A DNA stretch of 64,000 nucleotides from Ascochyta rabiei. Lineage: Eukaryota > Ascomycota > Dothideomycetes > Pleosporales > Didymellaceae. The translations under genes and the position numbers were made by a program. Positions 3 through 59,451 of this stretch are shown here, one piece after another. The stretch's first letter is position 1; each line of letters opens with the position of its first letter. The notes below the pieces were generated by a model. That model had not been told where the DNA came from. It saw only the letters and a list, made by a program, of their open reading frames with translations, and searched no databases. The DNA lies in the NCBI RefSeq assembly GCF_004011695.2, contig NC_082426.1:62001-126000 (forward strand), in the 5' to 3' direction.

Positions 3-347
3 CTCGCCTCCTTCACCGACGGCTCCATCTCGCCCTCGTTTGGCCAGAAGAAGCGCCTCGACGGCGAGGACGAGGCCCAGCCCACGCCCACGACCTCTCG
101 ATCCCTCCCCAACACCAAAGTCATCGTCACCACCGACCTCGGCTCCCGGGGCATCGACACCGTTTCCGTCCGCCACGTCATCCTCTACGACGTCCCCCAC
201 ACCACCATCGACTTCATCCACCGTCTCGGCCGCACAGGCCGCATGGGCCGTCGCGGACGCGGTATCGTCCTCCTGGGTCCTGGCGATCGTGCGGACGTGG
301 TGAGGGAGGTCAAGGACGCCATGTTTAGAGGCGAGGCCCTAATCTAG
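3..347 (+). CDS. MRH4: Mitochondrial DEAD-box RNA helicase, 3' end (MRH4 type, partial)
   Basis: Partial gene, cut by the window's left edge; 114 codons and the stop (TAG at 345-347) are visible. The frame carries helicase C-domain motif V ([13 protein letters not shown]) and motif VI ([17 protein letters not shown]), which bind ATP and RNA in DEAD-box helicases. The ending, [18 protein letters not shown], resembles that of fungal MRH4, a helicase needed for assembly of the mitochondrial large ribosomal subunit (family knowledge). The first visible residues form a hydrophilic insert ahead of motif V. The last 20 or so codons are the founder of a tandem repeat that continues beyond the stop. 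DEAD-box membership is secure; the MRH4 assignment is likely but rests on a short fragment. Confidence 0.8.
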
Positions 348-724
348 ACAATACAATGATTGTGTAGACATAGCAGGGAGGTAAAAGACGCCATGTTTAG
401 AGGCGAGGCCCTGATCTAGACAATACAATGATTGTGCAGACATAGCAGGGAGGTGAAAGACGCCATGTGTAGAGGCAAGGCCCTGATCTAGATAATATAA
501 TAATTGTGCAGACATAGTAAGGAAGGTTAAGGACGCTATGTTTAGAGGCGAGGCCCTGATCTAGACAATACAATGATTGTGCGGACGTGGCAGGGAGGTG
601 AAAGACGCCATGTGTAGAGGCAAGGCCCTAATCTAGACAATACAATAATTATGTAGACGTAGCAGGGAGGTTAAGGACGCTATGTGTAGAGGCGAGGCCC
701 TAATCTAGACAATACGTCGATTGT
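287..724 (+). repeat. 72-bp tandem array derived from the MRH4 3' end
   Basis: The anchor GACGCC/GACGCT recurs at 315, 387, 459, 532, 604 and 676, a 72-bp period with one 73-bp unit. Each unit repeats the last eight codons and stop of the helicase gene (ATGTTTAGAGGCGAGGCC plus TAATCTAG or TGATCTAG, some with TGTAGA). The first unit lies inside the coding sequence, so the coding tail is the source. Between founder and copies, the part upstream of GACGCC differs almost only by C-to-T and G-to-A changes (for example CGATCGTGCGGACGTGG against TGATTGTGTAGACATAG), as RIP would produce. Confidence 0.9.
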
Positions 725-1470
725 TCTTTTTGTCCACAGTCCTAGACGGTCCCGTTGTACGATATCTGTAGTGCATTGCATAGCAAGGCGTTGCTGCATG
801 ACAACATCCCGGTCAAACCCTAACAAGACATGCCAAGACAACGAGATCAAATAGCCTGTCCAACATCCACCACCTTGAACCCACACCTGCTTATCGTGCT
901 TCCTTTTATTGATCCTACTGCACAATATATCTATAAGAACACCTCTACCTCCCTTCTTGAAATCTACATTTTTTACTAGATTCTAGACTCTTAGTTTTTT
1001 ATTATACAGTACTACTTATATCTATCTATCTGTAAATAACACCTACTGTATAAAGAGAGAGAAGGTAGATTAGATACTAATAGACTTGTCTTAGAATTCC
1101 AACTATATATCTGTAATACGTACAGCTCTATACTACTGCACTCTATACCTACAAGCTAGTAATGTTAGAATAGAGATTCGCTATTAGTGTAGTGCTCTAT
1201 TAGATCTGTGCCGCTGTGCTCCTTGTCCACGAGCTAGGGGTGTAGGGATGGGGGTTTGCTATTTTTGTAATGCTGTGTTGCCTGCGTCTTTGCGCGTGTA
1301 GAGGCTGATTAAGTTGCTTTCCCCACCAAGCGACTTCCGTCCACGACACTCACGGCTCAGCAGCTCCATCCTATTCATCAAAGACTTGACATCATCTTGG
1401 CTACGAATCGTCAACAACGTAAGACCGATACGGAAAGAAGAGTGTTGGTGAACCGTCCCTTAATACAGAA
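725..1470. other. Intergenic, partly AT-rich
   Basis: No gene seen. From about 930 to 1240 the sequence becomes strongly AT-rich, with short TCTA/TATC runs, like RIP-mutated DNA elsewhere in the window. The edges are ordinary composition. Short open frames here have no recognisable protein character. Confidence 0.5.
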
Positions 1471-1487
1471 CTGCTAAGAACAGTGCC

Positions 1488-1937
1488 TGGCTTTCGGGCT
1501 TCTTTGCGTCTGAACCTGCAGAAGATGAAGTCACGGACCATGACCTGAGCTTCGAACACTTGGATCAGTACACCAAAGCTTACCGCACCGGAAAGCCCGA
1601 AGCCATGATGGAACTCTACCCCGGCAACTTCGTCTACTCCGACTTCAGTGCGCCCGTCCCTTCCCACCCACGCGAGACACGCTGATGAAAGACACGTACA
1701 ACAAGACCTTCCACAACTTCCACATCCTGGACATCAAACCCATGTCTGTACATGGGCACAAGGATTTCACGGCCTGGGAGTGGGAGATTACGTGCCAGCC
1801 GGCTGTTGATAACGACACGGGAGCGAAGATAGCAAAGTGGGGTGCGAAGCCGAAGAAGTCGGTGGGGTATACGTTGATGTGGTTGGAGGTGGCAAGATGT
1901 TGTGAAACAATGACTATGTGCAGATGAAGGATGTGTA
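1488..1937 (+). pseudogene. Broken NTF2-like (SnoaL-like) protein gene
   Basis: Three adjacent reading frames together look like one small NTF2/SnoaL-like protein. Frame one (about 1488-1685) reads FEHLDQYTKAYRTGKPEAMM then LYPGNFVYSDFS and stops at TGA 1683-1685. A second frame picks up with PPTRDTLMKDTYNKTFHNF and runs through a Trp-rich strand (FTAWEWEI) to VGYTLMWLEV near 1890. A third frame ends NNDYVQMKDV at TAG 1935-1937, the ending expected of the family. At least two single-base frame changes are needed and no good intron fits the first (the only GT..AG choice is 29 bp). I therefore call it a decayed gene; a sequencing error or an unusual intron is possible. The exact 5' end is unclear. 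Confidence 0.5.
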
Positions 1938-2747
1938 GCTATGACATCGGAACGGTGCTTTTGAACTTCCGGCAGCCTGACAGCAGGGCTCGTCGACAAC
2001 CACCGCAAATGACTTTGTCGTCTGCAACACGGCATCCATGTAGTCCGTCCCGTGCCAGCCTCTTGATGGGATCTCGCATCTCCTCTTGCTTAAGCTTGGC
2101 TGCACGATATAGTCCCAGAACGGCAGGCGTATTGACCTTCTTTCTGTAGACAGGTCTGCTTGTGAGCACTGTTCAGCATCTGGCCACGAGAACAGACTAG
2201 CTCTTCAAACCGTAGGCTGGTCGATACTCGGTATGCCAGACTCCGTTCCTAATAAGAGTCGGTTTCTGTATCTGTACTCTCACTGACTTACGTGTGTCGT
2301 TTTTTTCCTGCACAAAGGACAGGGGGATGACATGAGCTGCATCTCCACCCCGAGAACCCATGGCGATTGATCAGAGTTTCCTCATCCCGTCTCCGCATGA
2401 GAAAACATCTCGTACCGATAACGGGATGACCACGATATTCATGCTCAAACGCTAGGGTCGTGAGTATCCTCTTTTCTAGGCGTAGAAGGATGCCATGAGC
2501 TCTTGACAAACAACATCTGCATAAGTTATTCTTCATTACGAAGATTGGTGATCAAGCTGTTTCATGACGCTCTATGGTTAGGCGGATGAGTGTGAATGCG
2601 CCTGAGCGAAAATAGCCTCACGACTCCAACCAGCCCCTCTTTCTCTCATGCTGAGGTTACATGCCATGCAAAGCACGTGTCTTCTCAATACCATCAAAGA
2701 TTGTTTTCTGCTAACGGGCTTCCACGGTGCTTGGAAGAAAACTTCTC
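1938..2747. other. Intergenic, no gene recognised
   Basis: About 800 bp between the NTF2-like pseudogene and the 3' end of the GPI-anchored protein gene. Several short open frames of 60-85 codons overlap on both strands, none with a recognisable domain, signal peptide or consistent splice structure. Confidence 0.4.
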
Positions 2748-3410
2748 CTACAACAGCAGACCGCCAAACACACATGCAGCAATGCCAACAAAACCCCCTC
2801 CGAAGACCATACCGTTGACTGCCGCACCGGCCGTAGAAGCCTGGGCAGGTGCAGAACCCGTTCGAGATGCGCTTGAAGATGCAGCGGCGCTACCTGACCC
2901 CGGCATTGGCGTGACGCTTGCTGTCGATGCGCTTGAAGGTACACTCCGAGCTGCAGTCTGCGACGCTATTGCAGACGAGCTCCCGGCCACGGAACCTGTA
3001 AGAACCAGCTCCTCCGTACCCGCAGTGACCGTCAAGGTCAGCTTGCCAATCTCGGTACCCTCGTAAGTCGTCGTGCTCGATCCCGGGAAGTTGGCCTCAC
3101 TGCCGCCAGCAGTTTCCTTGCACACCGCACTGCTGGATGCAAGCACGCAATCCTGGGTTGCGGTGAAATCGGTGTTGGGGTCCGACATGTCGACGTGGTA
3201 GGTCGAGCGTCCCACGACGAGGATGTTCTTGGGGAAGAGTCCGCAGTCGGCTGACATACACGCCAGCGCGAATGTGGTGGCGTCCTTGTTGGCGCCTACA
3301 ACGGACGCAGCTACAGAATTGGCATCGCCGAAGACGTATGGGACGGTCATTGTGACCTGCTGAGCCGTAGCCAGAGTGATTATAGTCGAGAGAATGAGTG
3401 TGGAAATCAT
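2748..3410 (-). CDS. GPI-anchored cell-surface protein, Ser-rich
   Basis: Single-exon protein of 220 aa. Residues 1-16 form a signal peptide (MISTLILSTIITLATAQ). A globular region with five cysteines follows (about 17-125, including CMSADCGLFP and the CVLASSSAVC pair). Residues about 140-195 are Ser/Ala/Thr-rich, a likely O-glycosylated stalk, and the last 25 residues are hydrophobic (VFGGGFVGIAACVFGGLLL) after a small-residue site, as in GPI-anchor signals. This layout is typical of fungal GPI-anchored wall or plasma-membrane proteins. The specific function is unknown. The start is the first Met and gives a clean signal peptide. Confidence 0.8.
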   Translation of the reverse strand: MISTLILSTIITLATAQQVTMTVPYVFGDANSVAASVVGANKDATTFALACMSADCGLFPKNILVVGRSTYHVDMSDPNTDFTATQDCVLASSSAVCKETAGGSEANFPGSSTTTYEGTEIGKLTLTVTAGTEELVLTGSVAGSSSAIASQTAARSVPSSASTASVTPMPGSGSAAASSSASRTGSAPAQASTAGAAVNGMVFGGGFVGIAACVFGGLLL

Positions 3411-4182
3411 GGTGACGATGTGATCATCGCTGTAATGAGCAAACTAGTCCAAGGGCGTTGGCGAACTGCTGAAGGTTGGGCGCGAATACTAACGAGTGAC
3501 GAATGCACGGGAACAGAAACGGGGTGAGTATGTCAAGACCGCGGCAGAATATATAGTCTTTCCGAGTCAGATATTTGGACATGGCACGCCTCGACAGGCT
3601 ATCGCAAAAGGGGCTAGGCAACGTCACTGGTGGCGTTTATAGGGGATATTCGGCTGTTTCTGGTATCCAACTATCGACCGACCGTTGTTCTGCTGCAGTG
3701 AAAAGCCTTCAGAAAGTCCATGGCCCGAGTCATTGCATCGGAACCCAAAACATTCGCCCACAAACGCCCTCATCAGTCCGGTTGTCAGTCAAAAGCTTTG
3801 AGCGTCGTTGCACGGAATACAAGGCGCTAATACTAGCTCCCGAGGCACGGCTCTTAGTTCCGTGTGTCGATCATCCAACATGTCACAACCAAGGTTGTCA
3901 ACGATCAAATGGATTTAATATTCTGAGTTGGTTTTGTTTGATTCCTTCAAAACAATCGAACTAACGTCCAGTACGCCTAACATCAAACAGAATCGATATT
4001 CCTGCTCCTTTTTATCAAATCTGTTTGAACTTGTTTGAATTCGCGTTGCACGTGAGGTTGTTAGGATACTTGTGATAGCTGCTGACGATCGATTTCCTGG
4101 GGTAGTTGGAACCCACCACCACTAGCTCAACACAGCAATTATATAGTAGCTTGAGCAAAAAGATAGCCTGTTCTGAGAGTAG

Positions 4183-4300
4183 AGTTAAACCTGCAAGCTT
4201 AAAAGCTCGTAGATTTCATCCAGACTAGCAGACGCTTGCTTAAGCAGCGGTGTTCGTAGACTTGGTTGCGGACCGCTAGCCTAGATCGAATCCCTTCTCT
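4183..4300 (+). pseudogene. Possible decayed 5S rRNA copy
   Basis: This stretch lines up by eye with fungal 5S rRNA. It has CTCGTAGATTTCATCC where 5S genes have CTCGGGATCCCGTCC, then CTTAAGC, then GTAGACTTGGTTGCGGACCGC resembling the internal control region, and CGAATCCCTTCT, the usual fungal 5S 3' end. The distance from CTTAAGC to CGAATCCC is within one or two bases of that in 5S, and total length is about 118. GATCCCGTCC to GATTTCATCC is three RIP-type transitions. A TTTT run follows at 4307-4311. It could be a 5S pseudogene, a 5S-derived SINE or chance; an alignment would decide. Confidence 0.35.
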
Positions 4301-4709
4301 TCCTCCTCTTTTGATAGAATGTTCTTAAGACTGTAGAGATATATAGAATATACTAAACAGGTTATTGTAATATTATTGTTGTATTGTAACAGAGAAAGAT
4401 TCTGGTACTAGCTTAGGTTTGGCATCCATCCATGAATGTCAATCATCTAGTACAATTGCCAAAAAAATCGCCAGCTACAACCACGCTGTAAATCTACTAA
4501 CCCAGCTTGGTAATAATTAAAGTTATACTGCTGAGTTATTTATACTTGTCACGTTTACTCTAGCTCTGTTGTGGCGGATTAGGAGGAGCTACCTTAGTAT
4601 TTGATATCGCCTTTTAGAGCCTCACAATTCTTAATAATCAAACAATTGTACAATTAAAACAGCTCCTATAATCTATCAAAGCCAATAAACAAAGCGCAAC
4701 ACCAGGGAA

Positions 4710-4763
4710 TTGTCAAACAAACAAAACTGGGCTTCAAATATTGTTTGTTTTGTTTGTTGACAA
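4710..4763. repeat. Imperfect inverted repeat
   Basis: TTGTCAAACAAACAAAAC at 4710-4727 is nearly the reverse complement of GTTTGTTTTGTTTGTTGACAA at 4743-4763, with a loop of about 15 bases (TGGGCTTCAAATATT). It lies in AT-rich, probably RIP-affected DNA. It may be a remnant of a terminal inverted repeat or a hairpin formed by (CAAA)n words; no flanking target-site duplication was recognised. Confidence 0.5.
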
Positions 4764-4913
4764 GCTTGATCACAACCTGATGAACACAGGTTCAGAAGAC
4801 AAGTGATGGAGTGCGCTTGTTGGTAATGGGACGATATTTAAGCACACCTCCTCTCCCGCAGTTGTCTGCGAATAGGTACAGCATAATCGATCTGTGCGTG
4901 AAACATTCTTCCG

Positions 4914-6345
4914 TCAATCCAGGTCCTCGAGCGCCCAATGAGGCCAAATCTCATCCTGCCTTGGTCTGCTGGCCAGGTTTCGATCTTGGATATGCTCGGC
5001 CAACGGCAGGTCTTCGTGCTGACTCCTTTCTCCCATACTCACTCCCCTGGCCTGGATCGTCCTAGCAAACCCCAGCGTCTGCATCTTCCATTGTTTCCTC
5101 CCAAGCTTGCCCTCAATCATGTCTGCCAGAGCTGTCGCATCAAAGCACGCCTGACTTGTACTGGCGACAGTGTGGGGCCGGAAGCCAGCAAGCGCATCGC
5201 CAATCAAGATGACGCGCCCGTCGAGAAACTCGTTGGTTGGCGATATGACGTCGGTGACGGCCTGGACGAAGGGCGTTTCTGTTGAACAAACAAGCTCTGC
5301 GAACTGCGGTGGGAGTTTCTCACGTGCAATCTTGCATTGTTTCTCCCACGCCTTGGGGTTGATTTTGCCCGGCGGTAGCGTGATGCGGTGGTAGTTGCCA
5401 TCCACGTCTGTCATGAGTTCGCGGAACTCCTTTGAGCGGTCGGTCATGCCCCTGGGCTTCGTGTTTTTGTAGTACACAAAATTGATGAAACGTTTCCCAG
5501 GCGATAATACGCCGTTTGTGCCGGGGATGAGGTATGCCAGGATTTGGATGCCGGGGCAATGGAAGAACGTAAAACGCTCGCTGAAGGCTTCCAGAGTCTT
5601 AGGACTGACACTGTCCTCGCGGAGGGTGCCACGCAGAGCGACATAGCCAGCATATGTTCGCTCGACATCGGGTGAAAAGATTGAGCGGATGGTGGAGCTG
5701 GGGCCGTCCGCGCCGATAACGAGGCCTGCTTCTACCGAACCCTTGACCTTGTCGCTGGTCTCATACTCGATGACGAGTCTACCTCCTTCGCTCTCTTTTC
5801 TCCACATCCCTGTGACTTTGTGCCCATGCAGGTGCTTCACTGTGGAATTGCTATCGTCGCTTTCGGGGACCGAGCAGTATTCGCTTTCCAAACCGTCGAC
5901 ATTGGCGCGGAGCATGTAATATGCTAGATCCCAGCTCGTCATATTTTGTTTCACATCTTCTTTGTGCACAATCTCGCCGTCAATGTTCAGGTACTGCCTG
6001 CGCAGGCTGGAGACGGCCAGTTCGCGCCCACATCTGTCATATCTCTTGAAGAACGCGAGCGTGTCGCCACCCGCAACAATACCCGCGCCATGGTTGTTCA
6101 GGACCCGTTCGGGATTGCGCTCAAGTAATGTGATCGTATGGGCGTGCGGCGACGGAAGGCGCTTAAGGGCGAGTGCGGTTGCAAGACCTCCTAATGAAGC
6201 TCCTATCTATCGCGACGTCAGATGCATACGATGACGTAGTGCCATGTGGTCTCACGACCATCACCAAGAGGTTACTCACGATGACGACGTCCAGGTTCCT
6301 TGTTGTCGCGTGAGGAAATCCCTCGGACCGGATAGTTGAGTCCAT
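4914..6345 (-). CDS. FAD-dependent monooxygenase (2,6-dihydroxypyridine hydroxylase-like)
   Basis: Two exons: 6345-6280 and 6206-4914, with a 73-bp intron (GTGAGT..GCGATAG). The joined product is 452 aa. The splice falls inside the Rossmann motif and restores DVVIIGASLGG (the FAD-binding GxxxGG), which supports it. The next elements are TITLLERNPERVLNNHGAG, VIGADGPSSTIRSIF (the DG motif, near residue 190) and VILIGDALAGFRPHTVAS (the GD motif that binds the FAD ribityl chain). The family hydroxylates aromatic or N-heterocyclic substrates using NAD(P)H; the substrate here cannot be read. It is divergent from the reductase at 6713 and probably shares its 367-bp promoter region. Confidence 0.85.
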
Positions 6346-6712
6346 CGGTCCGCGGTCACAATTGCAGAAAGAACAGTGCATCCTCTCATCCAGTATGTGT
6401 TTTCTACCGATCGGCATGCACGCCGTCAATCCGTCTCAAACATGATGTAGCTTCGGAGAGCCCCGATCGATGTGTATACGGTTATGCGTCCTGGATCGCT
6501 GTTTTTCGATCGGAAAAGCTGAAAGTCCACAGCGGAAAGTCCAGGCCTTTGGAGGCAAATGATGTTCCTACCCAACCCAAACGCCCTTCGACAGCCGCTT
6601 TTAAACCGAGTGAAGCCTTGCCGTGGGTTTAACTACAGCTTTGGTATGTTCTCTCTTCTCAGAATGTAGTTCACATTCTGTTGCAGAGAGGCAACCAGCA
6701 CACAAAGCGACA
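6346..6712. promoter_or_regulatory. Shared upstream region of a divergent gene pair
   Basis: A 367-bp stretch between the start codons of the FAD monooxygenase (minus) and the reductase (plus). It has no convincing coding frame and must hold both promoters. A pyrimidine-rich stretch (TTCTCTCTTCTCAG, about 6649-6662) lies roughly 50 bp upstream of the plus-strand ATG. No specific factor site could be assigned. Confidence 0.5.
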
Positions 6713-7843
6713 ATGACAGAGGCGCGTAAGGGTCTAGTTGCAGTACGTCATAGGCAACGCAACCGTCTACACACTAGCTAACGTCTGTCTCAGATCACAG
6801 GCGCCAACGGAACCATAGGATACGCGTGTGTAGTCTACGCCCTCAATATTGGATATCGAGTAAGATGCATTGTCCGCCGCGAGAACGCAGTAGCGACTAT
6901 TGAGTCAGCACCTTCGGTACAACCCTACCTCGACCGTCTTGAGTTCGCGATCGTGCCGGACAACGCAATCGAAGGCGCTTACGATGAAGCGTTTGCAGAT
7001 GTCGATTACGTTGTACATATTGCTGGAGTCTGGCCTCTGCCGACGTTGCATCCTGACAACGAGATTTACCGCCCATTCCTGCACTCCATGAACAACGTCC
7101 TCTCATCCGCCAAATTATCCGGGACAGTCAGAAGGATTGTTTTCACGCAGGCTGGCGCAGGTCTCGTCGACTCAGAAGTTGGCGACACGTACGGCCGTGG
7201 TATGACCCAGATTCTGAACGAACATGTCAGAGTCAATGCCGCCTCGCTCACCTATCAGCCTCCATTATCGTCCGCCCACCAGGCGTACTGCGCTTCAAAA
7301 GCTCAATGCATGGACTACCTTGACAACCTACGTCGCAGCCGTGCAATGCCGTTCTCCATCGTGCAGGTCATTCCTGGGACCGTAATCGGAACGTCCGAGT
7401 TTGTGAAGACGGCGGAGGAGGCACGAATGCATATGGATCGGCAGACGAGAGCGCTACTCTTTGATGATAACACGCCAAGGTATGCGTTTGGATTCGTGCA
7501 TGTGCAAGATTGTGCAAGGGTGCATGTCGAGGCGCTTGATGAGGAGAAGGTCAAAGACGCGGACATACCGCCTAGATTTGTCGCAGCCGCGACTACAGAG
7601 GAAGGTTTAGATGGAGAGCGGGTCTGGAGCAAGGCAGTGAGGATGATTGAAAGCGAATTTGCGTCTGAGATCGAAAGCGATGTATTTGCTTTGGGACGCG
7701 AACGAACGCCGACCAACATGCCATATCGGGTGGATTCAAGAACAACAGAAAAGATGCTGTTGGGTGGGGAGGTTATCAAGGGCTTAGAAGAGTCTGTCAA
7801 GGAAGTCGCTAGATGGTATGCTCGATTCGTGGAAAGATCTTAA
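6713..7843 (+). CDS. NAD(P)-dependent epimerase/dehydratase (dihydroflavonol-reductase-like SDR)
   Basis: Two exons: 6713-6742 and 6794-7843, with a 51-bp intron (GTACGT..CTCAG). The product is 359 aa. The splice joins LVA to ITGANGTIG and so rebuilds the N-terminal GxxGxxG nucleotide-binding motif of extended short-chain dehydrogenases. The active-site YxxxK is seen as YCASK (about residue 198). VDYVVHIAGVWP matches the conserved helix-strand region before it. Members reduce or isomerise ketone, aldehyde or sugar-like groups; this one most resembles the dihydroflavonol-4-reductase/3-beta-HSD-like branch. Its position next to a FAD monooxygenase suggests a joint small-molecule pathway, which is inference. 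Confidence 0.85.
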
Positions 7844-7924
7844 AGAACAAGTCATAACAATCGCATATGGTCTATGTGTGATCCCAGCTCCAGTCACCAG
7901 AACTTCCTCTATATGCGATAGGAC

Positions 7925-10253: not shown

Positions 10254-10521
10254 GAAGGGAGTCGGCGCGAGGCGTGGTGTTGCGGGGTGTGATAAGCGGT
10301 GAAAATCTAATCAGATGGCAGATGGGCGCAGCGCACGAGCGGCCGGCTATTTCTCGGGCAACAAATTAGGCAAGAGCCCTCAACCTTGAAGGACTCAATG
10401 TCAGCCTGCATACCGTACAACCTGACCATATCATAAACACTATAGCCATATCTGTGTTCTTCTTGCAACGTGAGAACTTCTGTTCTTTGCTGCAGGATTC
10501 ACCTGTACGACACCTCCGGTC

Positions 10522-33363: not shown

Positions 33364-33589
33364 TTACTTTCTGATTGGATGAAGATTCGGCTAATTATTC
33401 AAAAACTATACACTCTAAACTAAGCATCGGCACGAAACGCGCACGAATCCTATGTTTTGTGCAGGAGGTTCGGTCGCACGGTGTCTGGGGTGCAGTTTTC
33501 TCCAACACGAGGTGGATCTTGTGGGGTATTTTTGGGTTGCGAGTGCACGGAATTAACAGTAGTAGAAATGTATTTCTGTTGCTAAGAAC

Positions 33590-33850
33590 GCAAGGCTACC
33601 TATGTAACCCTAATACCTAACATATAAGGTACTAACACGTACATACTACAGTAGGCTACACTATAAGCACACTACTTAGTTTAAGGATGCCTGTACTAGT
33701 AAACGTGCTAATAAAGCACTGTTTACAGCTATATAGTAGACAAGGGGATTTACTAAGTAACTATTAGGCTAAGTGGCACTAGCATGTAGCAACGTCTACC
33801 TCTAACCTAGTATTAGCAACAAGTACTGTTCTGGTCTACGTGCCTACTAT
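33590..33850 (-). repeat. RIP-mutated partial copy of the adjacent ZIP gene 3' end
   Basis: This stretch matches the end of the ZIP transporter gene at an offset of 402 bp: GTAGGCTACACTATAAGC at 33651 lines up with GCAGGCTACGCTGTAAGC at 34053. Over 83 columns I counted about 25 differences, and about 20 are C-to-T or G-to-A in the copy. The similarity includes the gene's stop codon and its final codons, and also reaches into 3' flanking sequence before it. The right edge is uncertain because similarity fades with more mutations after about 33780. It is not functional. Confidence 0.85.
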
Positions 33851-34057
33851 CTAAGATTCTAAGTAAGTACTAATACCTTTTAGAGGTCTACCTAGCATAG
33901 TAGAGCCGTATCTTAATAGTAACAGTATTAAGACAGATAAAGATAGGAGAATAATAGTAATAGTCTATATGCATAAGAATGTAACACAACACTGTCTATG
34001 CAAATAAAAATCTAACACCTAATATGTAAAGTACCAACGCGTATATACTACAGCAGG
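33851..34057. other. AT-rich 3' flank of the ZIP gene
   Basis: AT-rich, with TAAGTA/TAATAG words. Parts near 33980-34050 match the flank of the RIP-mutated copy at 33590-33640, so this is the other half of the local duplication. Confidence 0.5.
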
Positions 34058-35634
34058 CTACGCTGTAAGCGCACTGCTTAGCCCCAGGATGCCCATGCCG
34101 GCGAACGCGCTGACGAAGCACAGTTTCCGACTATGCGTCAAGTCGAGCGACTCGCCGAGCAACTGCAGCGACACCATGGCCATGATGCCTGCGGTCACGG
34201 CGAACATGCAGCCGTAAACTTTCTCGCCGGGCTCGCCCATGCCGTCGCTCTTGCCGCGGCCTGCCACTTTGAACCACAGCGCTGCAACGCCGGCGCCGAG
34301 CGGCTGCGATACGCCGCCGAGGAGGGCGCTCCAGAACATGGCGCGCCAGCGCGAGTTGATGGCGAGGTAGAGGGGGAGGGCGAGCGCGAAGCCTTCGGTT
34401 ATGTTGTGGATGAAGAGCGCGAGGAAGATGGAGAGGCCGAGGGTTGGGTTCGCGTGGTTGGTCGCGTAGGTGATGAAGCCTTCGGGGATCTTGTGCAGCG
34501 CGATTGCGGTGCTGGTCTGGAGACCGATGGCGAGGAAGGCGTTGGTGGGGACGTGGTGGTGGTGTTGCGGGGCGTGGGAGGCGTGCGAGTGGGCTGAGTG
34601 GCTTGAGGATGCGGATGAGAGCGACGTCTGGCTGTGTTTTTGCGCGAGGCTGCGCGGGCGTGTGTTGTTCGTGGTAGGCAGGCTGGCGGTCGAGCTGTCC
34701 ATCATGGCAGGTCCGGAGCGCGTGGGCATGAGTGGTGTTGTCTCGTCGACATCCTCGAGAGTAAGAAGCTGGCGGTCGTGGGCGTGCGGACCTTGAGTGG
34801 TCTGGTGTCTGTTGGCTGCGGAGGGGCGTGCTGGGTTTAGATGCTGGCTTGACTTGGAGGCATACAGACGGGGAGGCCGCTGCTGTACATTCTTGAAGCA
34901 TTCTGCCCCGCATGCATCTGAGTAGCCGTAGCACTGCCCATCCTCGTCGCAGAGTGCTTTCTTCTGGCCGGTGACTAGTTGTGAGACCTTGGTCGAGATG
35001 GCCGTGTGTAATGACGGTCGACGGGGCAACTTGGAGTTGTCACTGTTAGTGCCGTAGGAGTGCTCCTCGTGTCCAGCGTCGGGCTGCAGCAATCCACTGT
35101 TTTGCTCTTGCATGGGCTTGTGCGAGTGCGCTGCCTCTTCATCCTCGACTTTGCCCTCGTCACCGTGCTCGTGATCGCAATCGACGACGGAGTGCGGTAT
35201 GTAGCGATGCAAGATGTCTGAAAGGATAGAAATGCCGAATGCACCAAGCAGGAAGAAGCCAATCATGGTCAATGTCGCATCTCTCGGGGTCATGCCTCCG
35301 GTGATCAGATACTTCTTCGATGACGGCAACATGCTGAACAAGGAGGAAAATATCTGTGTGCTATTATCAGTAAAACGTAGCCACCGCACGGTTGCAGACG
35401 TACCATGACACCGAAGGAGAGACTCAGTCCAGTCGAAAGGAACGCATTGCTGTCCTCGATCTTGAAGTTTTTGTGCCCAGGAAAGAGGCGCACAATGAGG
35501 TCAACACAGATTATCGAAGCGCCAAACGTGCATGCTAGGTTCTGTCAGGATCATCACAGGAAGAAGACTCAAGCCAACATACCAATGCCGCTGACCACTG
35601 CCATTATCCATCCTCGCGTGTCATTGTCGAGCAT
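34058..35634 (-). CDS. ZRT3: ZIP family zinc/metal transporter (ZRT3/ATX2-like)
   Basis: Three exons: 35634-35583, 35534-35404 and 35353-34058, with introns of 48 and 50 bp. The product is 492 aa. N-terminal helices (IMAVVSGIACTFGASIICVD; LSTGLSLSFGVMIFSSLFSM) are followed by a cytosolic loop of about 200 residues with His-rich runs (HAPQHHHHVP). The ZIP core then has the metal-site helices AIALHKIPEGFITYATNHAN and FIHNITEGFALALPLYLAI, with the HxxxE and HNxxE patterns that bind zinc. The long loop and early LFSMLP element resemble yeast vacuolar Zrt3, which releases stored zinc. Substrate and membrane are inferred from this resemblance. The 3' end is partly duplicated downstream. Confidence 0.88.
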
Positions 35635-38676: not shown

Positions 38677-38970
38677 TCGTCCGAATCAGATCTGATCCTC
38701 TCTCGTCTGGATCAAATCCTATAATCAGCTAATAAATCCTTCCTCCCTCACTTGAATAAAATCCCATAATCAGCCAACAGATCCTTCCTCCCTCATCTGA
38801 ATTCAATCTAACCATCTGCTAACAAATCATTCCTCTCTCATCTGAATCAAATCCTACAGCCAGCTAATAAATTCTTCCTCCCTCACCTGAATAAAATCCT
38901 TCCTCCCTCACCTGAATAAAATCCAACCATCAGCCAACAGATCCTTCCTCTCTCGTCTGAATCCAGGATA
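38677..38970. repeat. 45-bp minisatellite
   Basis: About six copies of a 45-base unit of the form TGAATAAAATCCCATAATCA followed by GCCAACAGATCCTTCCTCCC and TCATC, including one shortened copy near 38890-38914. Copies differ at many positions, mostly C/T and A/G, so the array is old or mutated by RIP. Confidence 0.85.
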
Positions 38971-39106
38971 TCCTAACCCATCAGGAGTGTACAGTCCACG
39001 TGTGTCGTGCCTTGTTACGAGCCGTGTCACGAGTGGAGAACGCGCAAACGCTCGCGAGATGCAAGTGTGACGCGGCGCGATGGTTGGTGTCTGTCCATTG
39101 TTCTCT

Positions 39107-39339
39107 TGTCGATTGGAGTGTGTCGATTGGAGTGTCTGTCGATTGGAGTGTCTGTCGATTGGAGTGTCTGTCGATTGGAGTGTCTGTCGATTGGAGTGTC
39201 TGTCGATTGGAGTGTCTGTCGATTGGAGTGTCTGTCGATTGGAGTGTCTGTCGATTGGAGTGTCTGTCGATTGGAGTGTCTGTCGATTGGAGTGTCTGTC
39301 GATTGGAGTGTCTGTCGATTGGAGTGTCTGTCGATTGGA
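39107..39339. repeat. 16-bp minisatellite, nearly perfect
   Basis: About fifteen copies of GATTGGAGTGTCTGTC in direct tandem, almost identical (the first copy lacks the final TGTC pair). Because 16 is not a multiple of three, all three plus frames and minus frames stay open and give 16-residue repeating peptides. These are not genes. Near-identity means recent expansion, unlike the older 45-bp array next to it. Confidence 0.95.
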
Positions 39340-50577: not shown

Positions 50578-52091
50578 ACGCCGCGATAGTAGGGATAGGA
50601 CTACCAGTTTTGGTTCGCGATGTTCAAGTACTGCTTCAGGCTTCAAGCGTAAAGGGACGTTTGAGTACAACGTGTATCTCGATCGGCTAAAAAAAACTTG
50701 TCCAGCCAAACTGTCAGACTGCTGCAACGTCAGCGACAGATACTAAAAACCCGTGGTGTTGTACATGAAAAATACAGTCGATATCCTCTATGGGCTGCCT
50801 CAAATCGCCTCCCAGAGACCGCGGTCTTGGTGCAACTAGGGTCATAGCAACGGAAGCCAGTGCCTCTCCAGCATCGGCTCTGACCCAAGTCCTTTTTGCT
50901 GGATGTACAGGTGGAGCCGATGCGTGCTACGCTCCCCGCATTTTGGAAGATGCACTAAAATAGCCTAGCCAGCAACGTTTATTATACCATGTTCTTCGAC
51001 CACCTGCAAAAACTGCCAGAGAATACTGCTGACAATCTTGTACGTTTTCGAAAAGCATGAGAGCTGAACACAAGAGTGATGTTCATCTCATAGGTAACGG
51101 CCTTACAACAGTACAACCCAGAGACCTTTCATACCACTCTGATCATGTGCAGTTCCGAACTTGGTAAAGCTTTATCGCGATTTGCTGCTTAACTAGAGCA
51201 TTTCTGAGATCGCTCGATCTTTGGCACTGAGCTGAGCCGTAAACTCGCTGACCGTTAGGGCTGGGTGGCGCGCAGGGCAAGCCGTCCTGCGAAGCTAAAA
51301 GTAAGATAACCTCGTGTGAATTAGGCTGGATGAGGCTAACATTAAGCGCGAAAGGTTACCAAGTCAGGCTTGAAATTTTCGCTCTGGCTTCCTGTATTGG
51401 ATGGCTTTAGTCTCTTGAGTCCAGCTGTTCTTGTCCTACGTTAGTCGGGCTTGTGCGTTTTGGAGGCTCGAGTCCTGCAAGCCTTCGATAGTCGCAGACA
51501 ACAGTTTGCCACACGAAAGCCGGCCCCGAGCCGTGCCGACGCCAAAACACACGGGAAATGCTCGAAAAGATCGCGAGTTTCTCATAAGACACGATGTAAA
51601 TGCTGCGCAGACACAGACTCATCTACCTCACAACAAGAGACCAGCAAAAATGATGGAAGAAGACGACGTAGAAGATGCAAGACTTCATTAACAACCACTC
51701 TCTGCTACAACCATGACCGCTATTTTGGCGCGAGAAATTTCCCCGCACTTAGGTCTTTCAGCCAGCCCCTGGTCGTTAGCTCTGTGTGAGAGGGCTTCAT
51801 CTTCCACAAGGCCTGCTGAGCGACCAGAGATACTCGCAGGGATCGTTGTTCTGATTGCATATCAGACAAAAAGCCAAAAGCCACCAGAAGACATACTCAG
51901 CTGCGCCCAAAGCACACGAGGCATATCCTGATGGGTCCAGATACCAAAATGCAGATGTTCAAGTCCAGACCTCTGATAGCGAGCAGTCAGCTGATGGTCC
52001 GAACCTGGGTGAATATTAAACTGCACCGCCGTAAGACTTTCTCAATTCGAGCGAGCTTTAATTCTCATCTACAACTAGAGATCTTTTAGCC
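50578..52091. other. Intergenic, no gene recognised
   Basis: About 1.5 kb. Short frames around 51431-51931 show no domain or signal peptide. Nothing tRNA-like found. The last 100 bases before 52092 are likely the promoter and leader of the secreted-protein gene. Confidence 0.4.
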
Positions 52092-53156
52092 ATGTATCTT
52101 ACCGGCCTTGCGTTCTGCGCGGCTGCTTTCCTTACTTCCGTCCACGCACAGAGCTATCCGGGATGCAAGGGTGGATTATATGCACTTGTTGGGAGAGATG
52201 TCTCCAAATACCCTCCTGCCCAGACATTCTGCTCTTCGAAGTTCCCAGTGCCGGTCCAAACGTCGACTATCGTAGCCCCGACGCAAACGAGGGCACAAAC
52301 TGTTTACATTACAGCCACTACCACAGGGACAGCTACAGTCACCACGACCTATTCGACTTCAACATCCACATTGACAACCCATGAGACAGCTACTATTACC
52401 TGTCCGTCTTGCCATTTCACTCGCGTGTAGCATCCTGCTGACCGAATCAGTTGAAACGACCACCACTATAACAGTTCCATACGCAAAGCGTGCTGATCCA
52501 ACATCTGACAAATGGAAGAGCATTCTTAGTCAAGCCTCTGCTTTCGTCGGTGCAGTCTGCACGTGTATTGAGAAGCCCAAGACGACCAGTGTGACGACGA
52601 CACCAACGGTAACAGCTACCACCACAGCTACCACCACGGTCAGCATAACAACTACTTCAACCGCGTCTGTTGTTGCTACAATATCAACTACTGAAACGAA
52701 TACTGTTACAACGACTACCACTGTGACGGCGACAGCCACTGTGACGGCAGCTCCTAAGCCAGACTACAACCAGTGCAGCGGATCAAACACCTTTTGCGCG
52801 AACTCTGAAAGTTGTGTTTGTTACCCAACAACAGACAATGTAGGAGAATGCGTAAGTCGACTCACGGAAGTGTACATACGTCTTGAAGCTGACAATACCC
52901 CAAGTCTACGAATGGCGGCAGCTGCGGGCAACCGTGCAATACTGGGGCTGATTGTCCGAACAGCCGTTGCGTGACACAATGCCGGTACTCTGGATACGCG
53001 GGTGGCTGTACACCTGATAACGATCTCTTGAGGTGTCGGACTAGCTCCACTAGTGCCAGGTTGCTGTTTGCTCGCGGTTCGAAGTTGGGACAGGCTCGGG
53101 ATGTGGAAGCTCGAGCCGTAGCGCACCGACCTTATATCGAGCCACCATCGCAGTAG
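52092..53156 (+). CDS. Secreted Thr-rich, Cys-rich protein (effector-like or wall protein)
   Basis: Three exons: 52092-52401, 52451-52851 and 52905-53156, giving 320 aa. Residues 1-20 are a signal peptide (MYLTGLAFCAAAFLTSVHAQ). A Cys-bearing N-terminal segment (SYPGCKGGLYALVG to FCSSKFP) is followed by two Thr-rich mucin-like stretches, separated by VPYAKRADPTSDKW. The KR in that segment is a possible Kex2 cleavage site. After the second stretch comes a Cys-rich region (CSGSNTFCANSESCVCYP, then CSTNGGSCGQPCNTGADCP after the splice), resembling small disulphide-rich carbohydrate- or host-facing modules. No exact family is recognised. The first intron has a weak donor (GTCCGT), so exon 1 is the least certain. 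Confidence 0.7.
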
Positions 53157-53735
53157 GTTTATATTGGGCTGAGGGTTTAGTCTAGAGAGCTTGGGTCAAT
53201 GCATGTCGTTTGGGCACATATAGATTCTATATACAACGTCCTCGTGTTGATTGTTGCAGCTTGATCTCACTCGTGACAGAAGCTTTGAGATTCCTCAATA
53301 AAGGTATTTTTTGGACTGGCGTGCGGAACCCGGCCCACCTGGAGATTGCCAACACGCATTCAACGACACCACCAACATCTTGGAGATAGAACAAGAAAAT
53401 CGTGCACCGGTTAACAAATTTTGAACCTTCTCACAAGGCAACATCCTGATTAATGCTTGTCCAGATCGGGTCCAGGAGTGATGGAACATGTCAAGAGACT
53501 GCGATTTAGATCGTCACAAGTCACGATGATCATACGACTACTTTAGAAGTCTTGATCCCGTTGAAATCGATGGTCGAGGTCCAGCTGCAATAATGCATCG
53601 TCGTGAGGTCGTGGAAGACTAGCGTCAAAGAGAAATTTTGCCCCACATTCCCAGCGTGTCACAACCCAAATCTCACCTCAAAATCTGTGGTCCGTGACCT
53701 TAACGCCTCTCCCGACCATTGAGCGATTTGTAGCA
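53157..53735. other. Intergenic, no gene recognised
   Basis: About 580 bp between the secreted-protein gene and the THADA/TRM732 gene. Nothing recognisable besides a likely promoter near its right end. Confidence 0.4.
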
Positions 53736-56700
53736 ATGGCAGGGGCTGAGGGAAAGCAAACAATACCCACTCCAGAGAAGGCGCTGCGGGACCTAGCCAA
53801 GAATGCATCCAAGGCCATCCCTCGATTTGCAGAAAAGGAACCAATCACCGGCGTGAAGTAAGGATGCAAAGTCCGTGAACATCGAAGTTCAAGTTCCAAT
53901 CATTGCTGACCTCGACAGAGAGCTTCACGTCCTAATTGATCCTCTCTTGGAAACCGCTGATCTGCCCGATCTGAATCCCGGGCATCGAGCTGCAGCATCG
54001 AATGCACTGTGTTCGATTATTGAATGCTGCCAGGCATCAAAGACCGAGTATGCACGCAACGCGATCCTGGACCACTCGATATGGCTCAGATTGTTCAACA
54101 TTTATCTACAGAGATCAGATGATGCCAAAGGCAAATCGATGAGACAGATGCTCCTGCTCCTAACAAGTGTCATAACAAAGAACCAGAGCACGCACGCATC
54201 AGAACTCCGACTACAGGCTGCAGCAACTTTTGTGGACATCATCTGTGACCGACAAGACCGTGTCAAAGTCAAGCCGGCCTTGCAGGGTCTAGCACATTTC
54301 CTTCTCCGAGACGTGGTGTCGATAGCACAACTGCTTGAGCTGTACGGAGCTCAGTCCGCATCCAATGGACATTCTGGGACATCTTCTTCGCAAACTCTTT
54401 TCAATGCTTTCCTTGTGTGGGTGGTTCACCACGATACCTCACTCTCGGCGGGGCATTTGGTCAAGAACTTCCTGATCCAGGCACGCCAGCTGCCTGATAA
54501 CGCAACTCAGAGTAGCAGCACAGCCATCTCGCCATTATGGATAGAACCAGTCGTACAGACACTACATCAGTGGCCGGATCGTTTGCGTGAGTTCAAAGCC
54601 AATGTGTTCCCGCATTGCTTCCTGCCAAATATCGACGAGTACCTTCGCTTCCTCTCCTACCTGCGCTTTGGCGTACATGTGCAATCGAGAGGTGTTTTGC
54701 CTCAAGCCCTGCGCACATACGAGTCTCAAACCAGTGGGTTGGAACGCTCTGAGGAATTCAAGATCTTGTTGGCTGCCCTTGAGACTGGCAAGGAGTTGAC
54801 GATTGTTCGGGACATCGGTGAGTTGAGATGCAAGACTTGCAGCCAGGGAGCAGAAGGAGCTAATTTGACACAGACTTTCGTGTATGCGATCGAGTCGAAG
54901 TACAGGGCAACTACCTGAACCTGCCCGACGACATTTTTGGCGCTTGGATGTCTCACTCTGAGCCCGAGGTCAGGCTAGCCGGCGTATTTCTCTCAGTGCA
55001 CTCTACTGCCATCACAAAGCCCATGACTGGTGGCATCTTCAAGTCTCTCAAACGTAATTTGATCCACCTACACTCAGACACTGATGCCTACTTCCGACGA
55101 GAAGTTCACGGCTATACACAAAAGTTGTTTGACCGGCTCCGAGCGAGTACAGCCACTCTGTCGAAAAGCTTGATCAAGGGTCGCACGCCAGAGCAAGGCC
55201 GGCTACCATTCCCCAAAGAGTGTCTCCAACAGCAAAACTCATGTGCCGGGACAACTTTTGAGGACCCACTGATGGAATCTTTGGCCTTCGTCGTGTGGTA
55301 CATAAAATTCCTTGAGTGGGAACTCCGGTCGACCGGCACATATCAACGCCGCATCACGGCTCTCAGATCTCTAATTCTCGTTCTTAAGTCTGGTGTTGAC
55401 CCGGAAGTGCCACATGCGCAGTTATCGAAGTCAGCTCAGGGAGAGTTGAACTGGGCGCATGGATTACAGACCTCGAACCAACAACTGATTCGGTCGCTGC
55501 TAGACTTGGTCATGGATCCCTTTGATGATATTCGAGAAGCCTCCATATCCGCCCTTCAGTTATGTCTTGCAACACTACCAGGCGTTGAAAGAGATGCAGT
55601 GGTGACGTCAACGCTTCCACGCTTCGTTGCTCGCGCTGAGGCCATGATGCTCTGTACAGGGCGCGCTGACCATGCAGATGGTGTCGCTCGGGCCTACTCA
55701 CTGCAGTTTTCTGTGGCTAGTTCGAGTGCCACAAACTTATCGGATTCGCCATCATCGAGGTTTGGAGTGTTTGAGGGCCTGAACAAGCAGCTTGAGGAAA
55801 CACTCCAGGTTGCCAGAACAAACCTCTCGGAAGCTGTCAACGGCCGTCCAGTGCACGGCATGTTTGCTGCGTTGACGTGAGTTCTATTGACACTCGATTG
55901 AAAGCCGATTTGACTCATACTTCACAGCTATATTGTCGACCAGGATGGGTTCTACCCCAAAATTGCAGAAGAGTCTACTGACGCTCGCCACACTTGGGTA
56001 CAATCTCATGGTGACATCATTACGAGCTTTGAGTCGCTCTGGACTATTGTCTTCAACGTCCTCTGCGCCGATGCACCAGAAGGAAACGTACCAGACGAGA
56101 TGGAAGAATCAGCCAGCTTGGACACGAGGGAAGTTCTGAGCTACTCGTGGAGAGGTCTTAAAGAGGCTAGGTGAGCTCATGTTGCTGGTGTTAGTTATTT
56201 CCACTTACATTTATAGCGTTTTAATCCGTACAATGATCACCAAGGCTACAATTGGCGACGATGGGCAGGCGATGATCACACCAAATGTCTTTGAAAGGCT
56301 CGGTCGGCTCTGCTTTACACAGCTCTTGGAGCTTCGCCATCGCGGTGCACACTCGACAGTTGCTCAGACCTTCGCGGCCTTTTGTCGCCGTTGTGCCACC
56401 TCCAAGATCCCACAACTCCAAGCACTGCCAGAGGCGTGGTATCAAGTGAGTGCGTAAAAGTCATACCCTAACAGCTCCTGACATCTAATGCCAGGAAACA
56501 CTTCGATCGATGCAAGACAAAGCTGGTGCGATCACAAGGAGATCGGCTGGCATTCCCACACTCATGGCCAGCATAATTGCAGCTGAGCCAGAAGCTGGCG
56601 GGAAGTTGCTCGCGCGCGCCATGAACGACCTGGTCAATGAGGCGACTGTTGAGGCGCAACATACGAATATTGAAGAGAGTCGATTACCACAGGTGCATGC

Positions 56701-59128
56701 GATCAACTGTATCAAGGAGATCTTCACAACTTCGAAGCTCAGCGTAGCATCAGAAGCGTACATTGCACAAGGCCTGGAGCTTGCAGCAAAGACCCTCAAC
56801 TCGAACATGTATGTTGAACTGCACTTGTCGGAAACGTTTTGACTGACAGCGCGAACAGCTGGCCCATTCGAAATTGTAGCCTTATGCTCTTCAAAGCCCT
56901 GATTGAAAGGCTTCTGGGGAGCAGTGAAGCGCAAGACTGGAAAGAACAGGACCGTGCAAAGACATCTCGGTTCTCTTACGACAACTACCCCAGCTTACTG
57001 AGCATACTCTCTGACCTCCTTGATCCGGCTGGTCCTCTCAAGCAAACACTGGAGAACACGTCAGAGAGCAGCAATCCTTTCGATCTTCATGGAGCTGAAG
57101 GCGTCTTCCCAGCACTACAAATTCTGCGACAAGCGCGACCACCTACGAATGAACTTGGTCCAATCCGAGCCTCTGTGGAGAAGCTCTTGGCAAGTCCGCA
57201 CTGGCACATGCGCGACATGGCAGCACGGACTGTGGTGTCACTGCTTCCTTCGCACGAGGTGCACGATGCAGCCTTTGAGATGTTGAGGACCGGATGCAGC
57301 TCTGCTAACCACCGCCACGGCCTGCTGCTGGCTGTAAAATATATGATAAGGAAGCTTGTCAATGACCAGACCAGTCCGGGTAAACTCAATATCGCTTCTG
57401 ATCATGATCCCATCGCTGACGTGTGCAGCCTCGCAAGGAATCGAAGTTTTACTGCTCGAACTCATCAACTGTGTTGAACTCTGGTTCACCCATAACACAT
57501 GTCCCTTCGTCGATACCGTATTCCTTGACATCGTAAGCACATGCGGCCTGGCCGTGCTACAGCGTGAAGAATCGAAGCCTGTGTTGCATGCATGGACACA
57601 GCTCATGTCGTCTATTGAAGTCGGTCCAGAGTACGAGCTGGGTGTTTGTGGTGAATCCGACAGCTCTCTCCGTATCGAAGCCTTGGCTAGACTATTCATT
57701 ACCGATCGAACTATCATCAGGCCCGAGTCCTTAGGCACGATTGTCTCTGAAGATTACCAGAGCATCGGTGATACTCTTATGCTTCTAGCAACAGAGGATC
57801 CAGATACCTGCTGCGCTGCACTGGAGACGTTAGAAACGATTATCCAAAAGGCCTTTTCGAACGCACCCACAAAGCCGATCTCGCTACTTATGGCACACGT
57901 ACATCGTGTTATTCTGAACGCCGTGGATGTGGAAGTCGTATCCAAAGCCCAATCTGTGTTGGCAGACGCCCTCGACAACGAGTCTGCGAGGACCGAATTC
58001 TTCACCCTTGTCACCGACTCGCAGCTCCTCGATACATTGGCAAGACTGGAGGACCAATGCCTCTCTGCTCCGCCTTCAAACGTGCAGAGCGCCCTGCACC
58101 TCCTCGGCTTCTTTATCGACCATGCCTACCACACGCTCCCGGAATCCCATGACACCATCTTCGCGTCCACAAGTCGCTACATCCGCCTCCTGCGCATGAC
58201 AATCATGGACACCAACCCCTTCGACACGCGCTTCGCCGCCGCGCAGTCGGTATGCGCACTGCATCACCTCTGGAGCTCGAAAACACCATCATCGCAACCA
58301 TCTCCGCTCGTGCTGGGGCTGGGCCTAATCGTATACGACACACTCCAAGACGACGACGACGAGATCCGCGACTGCGGCGCTCTCGCAACATCCACATTCC
58401 TGACCACGAGCCCAAAGATAAAATCAGCGCCTACAGTCCCGCTCCTAGCAACCCATAACCTACTCACGCACCTCCTCTCTCTCTTCCCAACCTCCACTGC
58501 ACTCGCAACCCACGCCCTACGCCGCCTGCTCGACACTCCCCAAGGCACCCCACTCTTCCAAACCCCCTTCACCGCCATTCTCTCAAGGGAACTAATGCCC
58601 AACACCGCGCTATTCGCGCAGGAGAAGCAGAACCAACACAAAGACGACGTCCTAGACGCGCTGGCCTGGTCTTCCATCTGCGTCTCTCTCGCCACCTCCC
58701 TGCCTGCTTCGGCAGTAGAGAGCGCAGCGGCGTGGACAGCAACCGCGCTCGACGTGCTGGCTCGCACATACGCCGGAGACACTGCGGATGCAGATGCAGA
58801 TGCAGATGCAGATGCAGCGCCCACGGACGGCCCGCTAGGCTGGGCCAGCAAACCCCGCGTCTTCACCTGGGCAGTGCGGATCCTCTGTCTAGCCGATCTA
58901 GCACTGCAGAGCCCCAGCCCGCATTCCTCTGCGCAGAGCAAGACGGCCATGAAACTGGGGTTGGCGCGGGTGGCAGACGCAATGCGTCGAGGCGGGGGTC
59001 ACGGTGTGTTGGTCCAGCGGGCGGAGAGGGTGTTGGAGCAGGATGTGCTGCGGGGGTTGGGCGTGCTGAGCGGGATTGCGAGGGAGGCGCCGGGGTATGC
59101 GGCTGCGGGCGGGTGGATGCACGGGTGA
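53736..59128 (+). CDS. TRM732: THADA / TRM732-like tRNA 2'-O-methylation partner (DUF2428)
   Basis: Eight exons: 53736-53857, 53919-54817, 54874-55876, 55928-56170, 56217-56445, 56495-56808, 56859-57379 and 57438-59128. The product is 1673 aa; all seven introns are 46-61 bp with matching phases. It is almost entirely alpha-helical repeats (for example LRLQAAATFVDIICDRQDRV; FGVHVQSRGVLPQALRTYES; MDPFDDIREASISALQLCL). Sequence and size match Trm732/THADA, which with Trm7/FTSJ1 helps 2'-O-methylate position 32 of some tRNAs. A (Asp-Ala)n run (DADADADADADAA) near residue 1560 comes from a (GCAGAT)n microsatellite. The stop is at 59126-59128; the last part of the gene is duplicated downstream. Confidence 0.85.
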
Positions 59129-59451
59129 GGGTTAGGTGTGTTGGTTGGAAGGTAGGTAGAAGTCGGGGGCTCAAGTAGTAGGTAGAAATAGCTTGTCTAT
59201 TTTACGTCTACTTTTTTTTTTAACAACAGAATGTGCTAGTCTGGTAGGTAGAGAGGAGGTTAGAAAGGAATGTATTAAGAGTGTTAGAGGTGCTGAAGAG
59301 AATTGCAAGAGTGGCGGTAGAGTATAGTAAAGCAAAAGAATAGACTTATAAAGTTTAGATTAAGTACAAGTCAAAAGCAGTTATTAGGGATAATATATCT
59401 ATTTTGTATTTGTTTTGGAGTTTTATGACAAGATATTGTGGTTATTCCCAC
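59129..59451. other. Spacer between THADA/TRM732 and DGAT1
   Basis: A short AT-rich spacer with a T-run (about 59211-59221). From about 59228 it is a mutated copy of the THADA 3' end (listed separately). No gene. Confidence 0.5.
59228..59400 (+). repeat. RIP-mutated copy of the THADA/TRM732 3' end
   Basis: This stretch aligns with the last part of the THADA coding sequence at an offset of 227 bp: GTAGAGAGGAGGTTAGAAAG at 59248 against GCGGAGAGGGTGTTGGAGCA at 59021. Of 29 differences in 70 columns counted by hand, 19 are G-to-A or C-to-T in the copy, mostly G-to-A on this strand. The similarity runs past the original stop into the flank, fading by about 59400. The copy is not translatable. Confidence 0.85.

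What the first reader, a model, noticed from the sequence alone, without database searches (positions are those of the whole stretch)
287..59400. Three unrelated genes each followed by a mutated copy of their own 3' end
MRH4 (287-724), the ZIP transporter (33590-33850) and THADA/TRM732 (59228-59400) are each followed, within 0-400 bp, by one or more copies of the last part of their coding sequence including the stop codon and 3' flank. In all three the copies differ from the source mainly by C-to-T and G-to-A changes. A process that repeatedly makes short, local tandem duplications at gene 3' ends, later mutated by RIP, would explain all three. I know of no named mechanism for such a bias in fungi.
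Basis: partly seen in the sequence, partly recalled or inferred. Interest (0 to 1): 0.75.

Follow-up and report, generated by a model that had tools for sequence, protein, structure and literature searches.

The report
Tandemly duplicated, decaying gene tail ends
In a chickpea-blight fungus the last stretch of several unrelated genes has been duplicated in tandem and the spare copies are decaying, most simply because a duplication over a gene's end leaves the gene intact while one over its start would not.

Summary
MRH4 helicase, a ZIP transporter and a THADA/DUF2428 gene are each followed head-to-tail by copies of their own end: 72 bp x6 (285-718), ~240 bp x2, 227 bp x2. The MRH4 and THADA stretches match nothing else in the 40.9-Mb genome (Ascochyta rabiei); the ZIP stretch matches elsewhere only through an unrelated 157-bp dispersed element, with its own 5-bp target duplication, that later landed in the ZIP copy. 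The gene-side copies carry C-termini shared with relatives, so the distal copies are derived. Most changes are C>T/G>A; a RIP-like CpA/CpG preference is clear for ZIP and MRH4, not for THADA.

Outside the window, 240 kb gave two more stop-spanning cases (BEACH x3, ~270 bp; Iwr1, 29 bp) and one ambiguous. In the sample 5 of 58 gene 3' ends and 0-1 of 55 5' ends carry such copies. Similar duplications are common in non-coding DNA. Excess over random tolerated placement: all events 5 against ~1 (P 0.0007-0.004), but three prompted the hypothesis; outside the window 2 against 0.5-0.8 (P 0.09-0.18), or 3 against 0.6-0.7 (P 0.015-0.028) with the ambiguous case.

Ordinary tandem duplication, tolerated at 3' ends, then RIP and decay explains the data. 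A 3'-specific process is neither shown nor excluded.

The parts
285..357 (+). MRH4 source unit: last 63 nt of the coding sequence with stop (345-347) plus 10 nt of flank
   Evidence: Helicase_C PF00271 in window 3-344; tail shared with 10 of 10 relatives printed
358..718 (+). five tandem copies of the MRH4 tail unit, 72-73 bp each
   Evidence: TRF; alignments
719..724 (+). GATTGT after the last MRH4 unit, against GATCGT at 285-290 where the first unit begins: possible microhomology, seen by eye, not tested
34058..35332 (-). ZIP transporter, last exon(s) of the gene
   Evidence: PF02535; 100% identical to an A. rabiei protein
33983..34222 (-). ZIP source unit: last ~165 nt of coding sequence, stop, ~75 nt of flank; aligned to 34180, the last ~40 bp placed by unit length
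33587..33761 (-). ZIP tail copy, distal part
33924..33982 (-). ZIP tail copy, part on the gene side of the inserted element; only its first stretch aligns, the rest placed by length
33762..33918 (.). 157-bp dispersed element inserted in the ZIP copy, flanked by an exact 5-bp duplication (33757-33761 and 33919-33923)
   Evidence: 35 other matches in the genome
57350..59128 (+). THADA/DUF2428-family gene, last open frame, stop at 59126-59128
   Evidence: homologues carrying PF26523, two of them also PF10350; Pfam itself gave no match to this frame
59000..59226 (+). THADA source unit: 129 nt coding plus 98 nt flank
59227..59431 (+). THADA tail copy, directly adjacent

Best explanation
Short head-to-tail tandem duplications (tens to about 270 bp) arise often in this genome, probably by slippage or template switching at microhomology. 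One that spans a stop codon does little harm: the promoter-side copy still carries the gene's true end, and the spare lies downstream. One over a start codon or inside a gene usually breaks it and is lost. Spare copies are free to decay. Where the paired stretch is long enough, RIP (C>T, preferring CpA and CpG here) hits them; purifying selection keeps the coding source unchanged, which makes the change look one-sided and keeps the pair recognisable longer. Shown: tandem geometry, which copy is the source, the mutation direction, the context in ZIP and MRH4, and similar duplications elsewhere in non-coding DNA. Inferred: the forming event, selection as the cause of the 3'/5' asymmetry, and RIP as the agent.
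For: Adjacent head-to-tail units at THADA and, with the element left out, at ZIP and at L035; six MRH4 units. Gene-side copies match relatives' C-termini. In the 304-kb scan 28 merged local direct duplications; 8 lie inside predicted genes and 20 do not. 3' ends 5 of 58; 5' ends 0 of 55, or 1 of 55 with one scoring. Context: ZIP CA 19/43, CG 19/36, CC 6/25, CT 7/56; MRH4 halves CA 14/55, CG 9/32, CC 1/52, CT 1/64; BEACH u0-u2 CA 25/49, CG 6/10, CC 4/30, CT 7/88. RIP in Neurospora can act on 155 bp and substantially on 220 bp of close homology (PMC4858203, passage). AT-rich blocks of this genome have strong RIP indices (C3 2.08 and 0.39, C7 2.08 and 0.29); three DNA-methylase loci are present.
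Against: With all events counted, stop-spanning ones exceed random tolerated placement about five-fold (P 0.0007-0.004), and with an ambiguous event the excess outside the window is P 0.015-0.028. THADA shows no clear CpA context. MRH4 copies have no RIP index signal and their unit is 72 bp. In the BEACH array the non-coding flank of the gene-side unit kept its Cs (20 sites C there and T in both copies, 1 site G there and A in both), which selection on coding sequence does not explain. The forming event was not observed.
Confidence: 0.65

Rival explanations
1. A 3'-end-specific duplication process: transcription termination or R-loops near poly(A) sites stall replication and repeatedly make short tandem duplications of gene tails.
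For: 5 stop-spanning events of 13 against 0.86-1.27 expected; 3 of 8 outside the window if C2:505417 is counted; two further arrays (L035, L049) begin 24-31 bp after a stop without including coding sequence.
Against: Three of the five prompted the hypothesis. Outside the window 2 of 7, P 0.09-0.18; with events found at one threshold only, 1 of 6, P 0.43. Fisher 5/58 against 0/55 gives 0.057, against 1/55 gives 0.21. Pairs with one conserved coding copy stay detectable longer. No shared motif was looked for or found.
Confidence: 0.22
2. The copies decayed by ordinary AT-biased mutation and deamination without RIP.
For: THADA has no clear context preference; MRH4 copies lack a RIP index signal; the MRH4 unit is shorter than the Neurospora threshold.
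Against: CpA and CpG preference in ZIP and MRH4, CpA in BEACH, L042 and L035; RIP index of the ZIP copy 3.0 and 0.47.
Confidence: 0.2
3. A mobile element insertion copied its flanks (long target-site duplication).
For: At 4 of 23 element places, including ZIP, the flanks are duplicated.
Against: At ZIP and L035 the element lies inside one copy of a tandem duplication that is complete without it, and it has its own 5-bp duplication. MRH4 and THADA hold no such element in these searches.
Confidence: 0.02
4. A dispersed repeat family that happens to include the gene ends.
For: The ZIP query found 35 further genomic matches.
Against: All 35 fall in query 196-363, that is the inserted element and a few bases beside it; the MRH4 and THADA queries hit only themselves. 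The search skips very common words, so a weak family could be missed.
Confidence: 0.02

Closest known systems
Short tandem duplication by slippage or microhomology-mediated template switching
   Same: Head-to-tail units, direct orientation, two to six copies, sizes of tens to hundreds of bp; possible microhomology at MRH4
   Different: Here the units noticed span stop codons, so one copy is a functional gene end; the forming event is not observed
RIP (repeat-induced point mutation)
   Same: C>T/G>A changes with CpA preference in ZIP, MRH4 and BEACH; close pairs of 220 bp or more in ZIP, THADA and BEACH
   Different: CpG is hit as much as CpA in ZIP; THADA lacks the context; the coding source copy and the BEACH gene-side flank are spared
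Minisatellite
   Same: The MRH4 array (72 bp, about six units) is one by form
   Different: Its first unit is the functional end of a conserved gene

Membership tests
Tandem duplication | adjacent units in the same orientation | tested here: met
   THADA 59226|59227 and ZIP with the element left out; MRH4
Tandem duplication | microhomology at the unit borders | tested here: inconclusive
   GATCGT/GATTGT at MRH4 read by eye; no statistical test, others too decayed
RIP | excess of C>T and G>A | tested here: met
   ZIP 39 of 59, THADA 26 of 38, MRH4 32 of 45
RIP | CpA preference | tested here: inconclusive
   met for ZIP, MRH4, BEACH (with CpG); not met for THADA
RIP | all copies of the repeat are hit | tested here: inconclusive
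   coding sources spared, as selection would do; but the non-coding flank of the BEACH gene-side unit is spared too
RIP | enough paired length (155 bp in Neurospora) | tested here: inconclusive
   ZIP, THADA, BEACH units exceed it; MRH4 units of 72 bp do not, though the array does; threshold from PMC4858203 passage, not from this fungus
RIP | arises in the sexual cycle and needs a RID-type methylase | not testable with these tools
   three DNA-methylase loci found but not assigned to type
Transposon insertion with long target duplication | element sits exactly between the two flank copies | tested here: not met
   element is inside one copy at ZIP and L035; own duplication is 5 bp

The most novel reading that the evidence does not exclude
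Gene 3' ends in this fungus are true hotspots of short tandem duplication, tied to transcription termination, so that on the order of one gene in twelve (5 of 58 sampled) carries a stop-spanning duplication of its own tail, many of them being erased by RIP.
Probability: 0.22. Interest if true: 0.65.

Novelty: new member of a known kind. Interest (0 to 1): 0.33.

Why it matters
If the sampled rate holds, hundreds of genes would carry spare, decaying copies of their own ends: a natural record of how often short tandem duplications form and of how long a pair must be before RIP acts, and a trap for annotation, RIP indices and repeat masking near gene ends. The 3'/5' asymmetry is a simple handle for telling selection from mutational bias.

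Tried and rejected
Long target-site duplication by the dispersed element: looked strong at first, rejected after leaving the element out and finding its own 5-bp duplication. L035 as a stop-spanning case: rejected, because the Sec24-type gene there (Sec23_helical, Gelsolin domains) ends at 1468 by my gene finder's splicing, about 27 bp outside the unit. Rows dropped before the placement test: of 28 merged events, 8 inside predicted genes, 7 on the AT-rich or gene-poor chunks C3, C7 and C11, and C2:505417-505614, a 100-bp tandem duplication at the end of a weak 103-aa gene model without Pfam match whose present stop lies in the copy; effect of counting it is. Iwr1 was added though found only by the gene-end scan. 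5' hits not counted: C22:62394 is a minus-strand gene model that ran wrongly over MRH4; C22:60175 (one of three scorings) is a long and probably real minus-strand gene whose modelled start lies in an 18-bp repeat run, so this one is doubtful rather than false. Two gene-finder versions were discarded. Rfam gave only a tRNA; a plasmid search gave nothing. Literature searches listed no paper on tandem duplication of fungal gene 3' ends; I saw listings and abstract beginnings only, and other wordings were not tried.

Full report
WHAT WAS CHECKED. The window is C22:62001-126000 of a 40.9-Mb, 23-contig genome. Its ZIP protein is 100% identical to one named Ascochyta rabiei on a contig of 1,006,318 bases, the length of C22, so the organism is A. 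rabiei, a chickpea pathogen; the isolate is not determined. For isolate ArME14, 40.9 Mb and 11,257 gene models are published (PMC7341154, passages).

GEOMETRY. MRH4: six units of 72-73 bp from 285 to 718, the first being the gene's own end. THADA: a 227-bp unit 59000-59226 (129 nt coding, 98 nt flank) directly followed by its copy 59227-59431. ZIP: source unit 33983 to about 34222, copy 33587-33761 plus 33924-33982, interrupted by a 157-bp element. On the gene side of the element only the first stretch of the copy aligns (to source 34180); the rest is placed by length. Gene identities: Zip PF02535 and Helicase_C PF00271, relatives named MRH4, DUF2428 family through relatives (Pfam gave no match to the THADA frame itself).

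WHICH COPY IS THE ORIGINAL. ZIP: the annotated own protein and all ten relatives aligned end in SSALTA. MRH4: all ten relatives printed share RGEALI, with at most four differences over 33 residues. THADA: four of nine relatives share the end clearly, four have diverged there and one is cut short. So the gene-side copies are the old ones.

COPIES ELSEWHERE. The MRH4 array, the DNA after it and the THADA region each hit only themselves. The ZIP query hit itself and 35 other places, all within query 196-363, that is the inserted element and a few bases beside it.

THE ELEMENT. 140-167 bp in the 15 copies for which both ends were found (34 hits looked at); 7 of these 15 have an exact 5-bp target duplication, the ZIP one among them. 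TG...CA ends with 5-bp duplications recall a solo LTR; that class is recalled, not tested. At 23 element places the two flanks were compared: ZIP, L049, L035, L042 and L041 exceed all 506 cross-pairs; L041 is low-complexity DNA and is discounted, and L043 is weak. At ZIP and L035 the element sits inside one copy of a duplication that is complete without it, so it came later.

HOW COMMON. I fetched 240 kb beyond the window (180 kb of it gene-rich) and wrote a simple gene finder (corrected). In 304 kb, 28 merged local direct duplications scored 50 or more: 8 inside predicted genes, 20 not. The two AT-richest classes also gave null hits (8 of 1074 and 4 of 1128), the others none (0 of 5724), so events in AT-rich DNA are less sure. 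Stop-spanning: MRH4, ZIP, THADA, a BEACH gene at C2:504104 (three units of about 270 bp from 22 nt before the end of the stop codon) and an Iwr1 gene at C22:143834 (29-bp period, 28 aligned bases identical). At 58 3' ends, 4 (RIP-aware), 4 (transition-tolerant) and 3 (strict) exceed the 99.9% null; at 55 5' ends 0, 1 and 0, the one being a doubtful start in an 18-bp repeat run. BEACH passes only with RIP-aware scoring and Iwr1 only with the other two; both are plain on direct alignment. The last exon of the BEACH gene rests on my gene finder and on its WD40-like end as I read it. A further event, C2:505417-505614, duplicates 100 bp at the end of a weak gene model; its present stop lies in the copy.

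IS THERE A 3' BIAS? I placed 13 events of the gene-rich chunks at random where a unit avoids coding DNA or covers only a stop, with 0, 300 or 600 bp promoter guards and with or without a 1.25-fold correction for missed genes. Expected 0.86-1.27 stop-spanning, seen 5 (P 0.0007-0.004); outside the window expected 0.54-0.80 of 7, seen 2 (P 0.09-0.18). With C2:505417 counted as stop-spanning (no promoter guard): 6 of 14, P 0.0001-0.0003, and outside the window 3 of 8, P 0.015-0.028; counted as not: 5 of 14, P 0.001-0.003, and 2 of 8, P 0.11-0.16; with the Iwr1 case left out, which the scan had not found: 1 of 6, P 0.43. Fisher tests of 3' against 5' ends give 0.057 (5/58 v 0/55) or 0.21 (5/58 v 1/55). 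I read the excess as suggestive, not shown.

MUTATION. With scoring that treats transitions and transversions alike, C>T plus G>A make up 39 of 59 (ZIP), 26 of 38 (THADA, 99 bp aligned) and 32 of 45 (MRH4, five copies). ZIP and MRH4 prefer CpA and CpG, BEACH CpA (and, on few sites, CpG), THADA neither clearly. RIP indices (TpA/ApT; (CpA+TpG)/(ApC+GpT)) are 3.0 and 0.47 for the ZIP copy, 1.56 and 0.87 for the THADA copy (its source has 2.0 and 0.93, so this index does not separate them), 1.09 and 1.14 for the MRH4 copies, and 1.73/0.56 and 1.88/0.50 for the BEACH copies. In Neurospora 155 bp of close homology can trigger RIP and 220 bp give substantial RIP (PMC4858203, passage). The 29-bp Iwr1 pair is unmutated. 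This fits a length-dependent RIP on top of ordinary decay, but length and age are not separated here.

VERDICT. A real and repeated pattern with an ordinary explanation: tolerated tandem duplications at gene ends, decaying partly by RIP. The open part is whether 3' ends are duplicated more often than tolerance alone predicts.

Noticed in passing
window 33762-33918 and 35 other genomic matches: A dispersed 140-167-bp element, ends like TGTYAGG...CCTRACA, exact 5-bp target duplication in 7 of 15 copies with both ends found; perhaps a solo LTR or a miniature element.
   Followed up: partly
C2:504083-504894 (L014): BEACH gene followed by two more ~270-bp tail copies. Copies 2 and 3 share C>T at 20 sites but G>A at 1, and the non-coding flank of the gene-side unit kept its Cs: strand-biased and one-sided, unexplained.
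   Followed up: partly
C22:143815-143872, window coordinates 81815-81872 (L007): Iwr1 gene with a young, unmutated 29-bp tandem duplication across its stop codon.
   Followed up: yes
C2:505417-505614 (L014): 100-bp tandem duplication at the end of a weak gene model; the downstream copy supplies a frame-shifted stop, so the duplication may have changed a protein's C-terminus.
   Followed up: partly
L035 and L049 with their flanks (C1:2102600-2105200, C5:428800-431400): Tandem duplications that begin 24-31 bp after a stop codon without including coding sequence.
   Followed up: partly
window 38696-38963 and 39087-39339: Two non-coding tandem arrays, one with a 16-bp unit and about 15 copies at 99% (TRF), upstream of a minus-strand gene.
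   Followed up: no
upstream of the window, about -2103 to -1765 in window coordinates (L005): An 18-bp repeat run, reading SSLPLP in the MRH4 frame and AAADWR on the other strand, between MRH4 and a long minus-strand gene model.
   Followed up: partly
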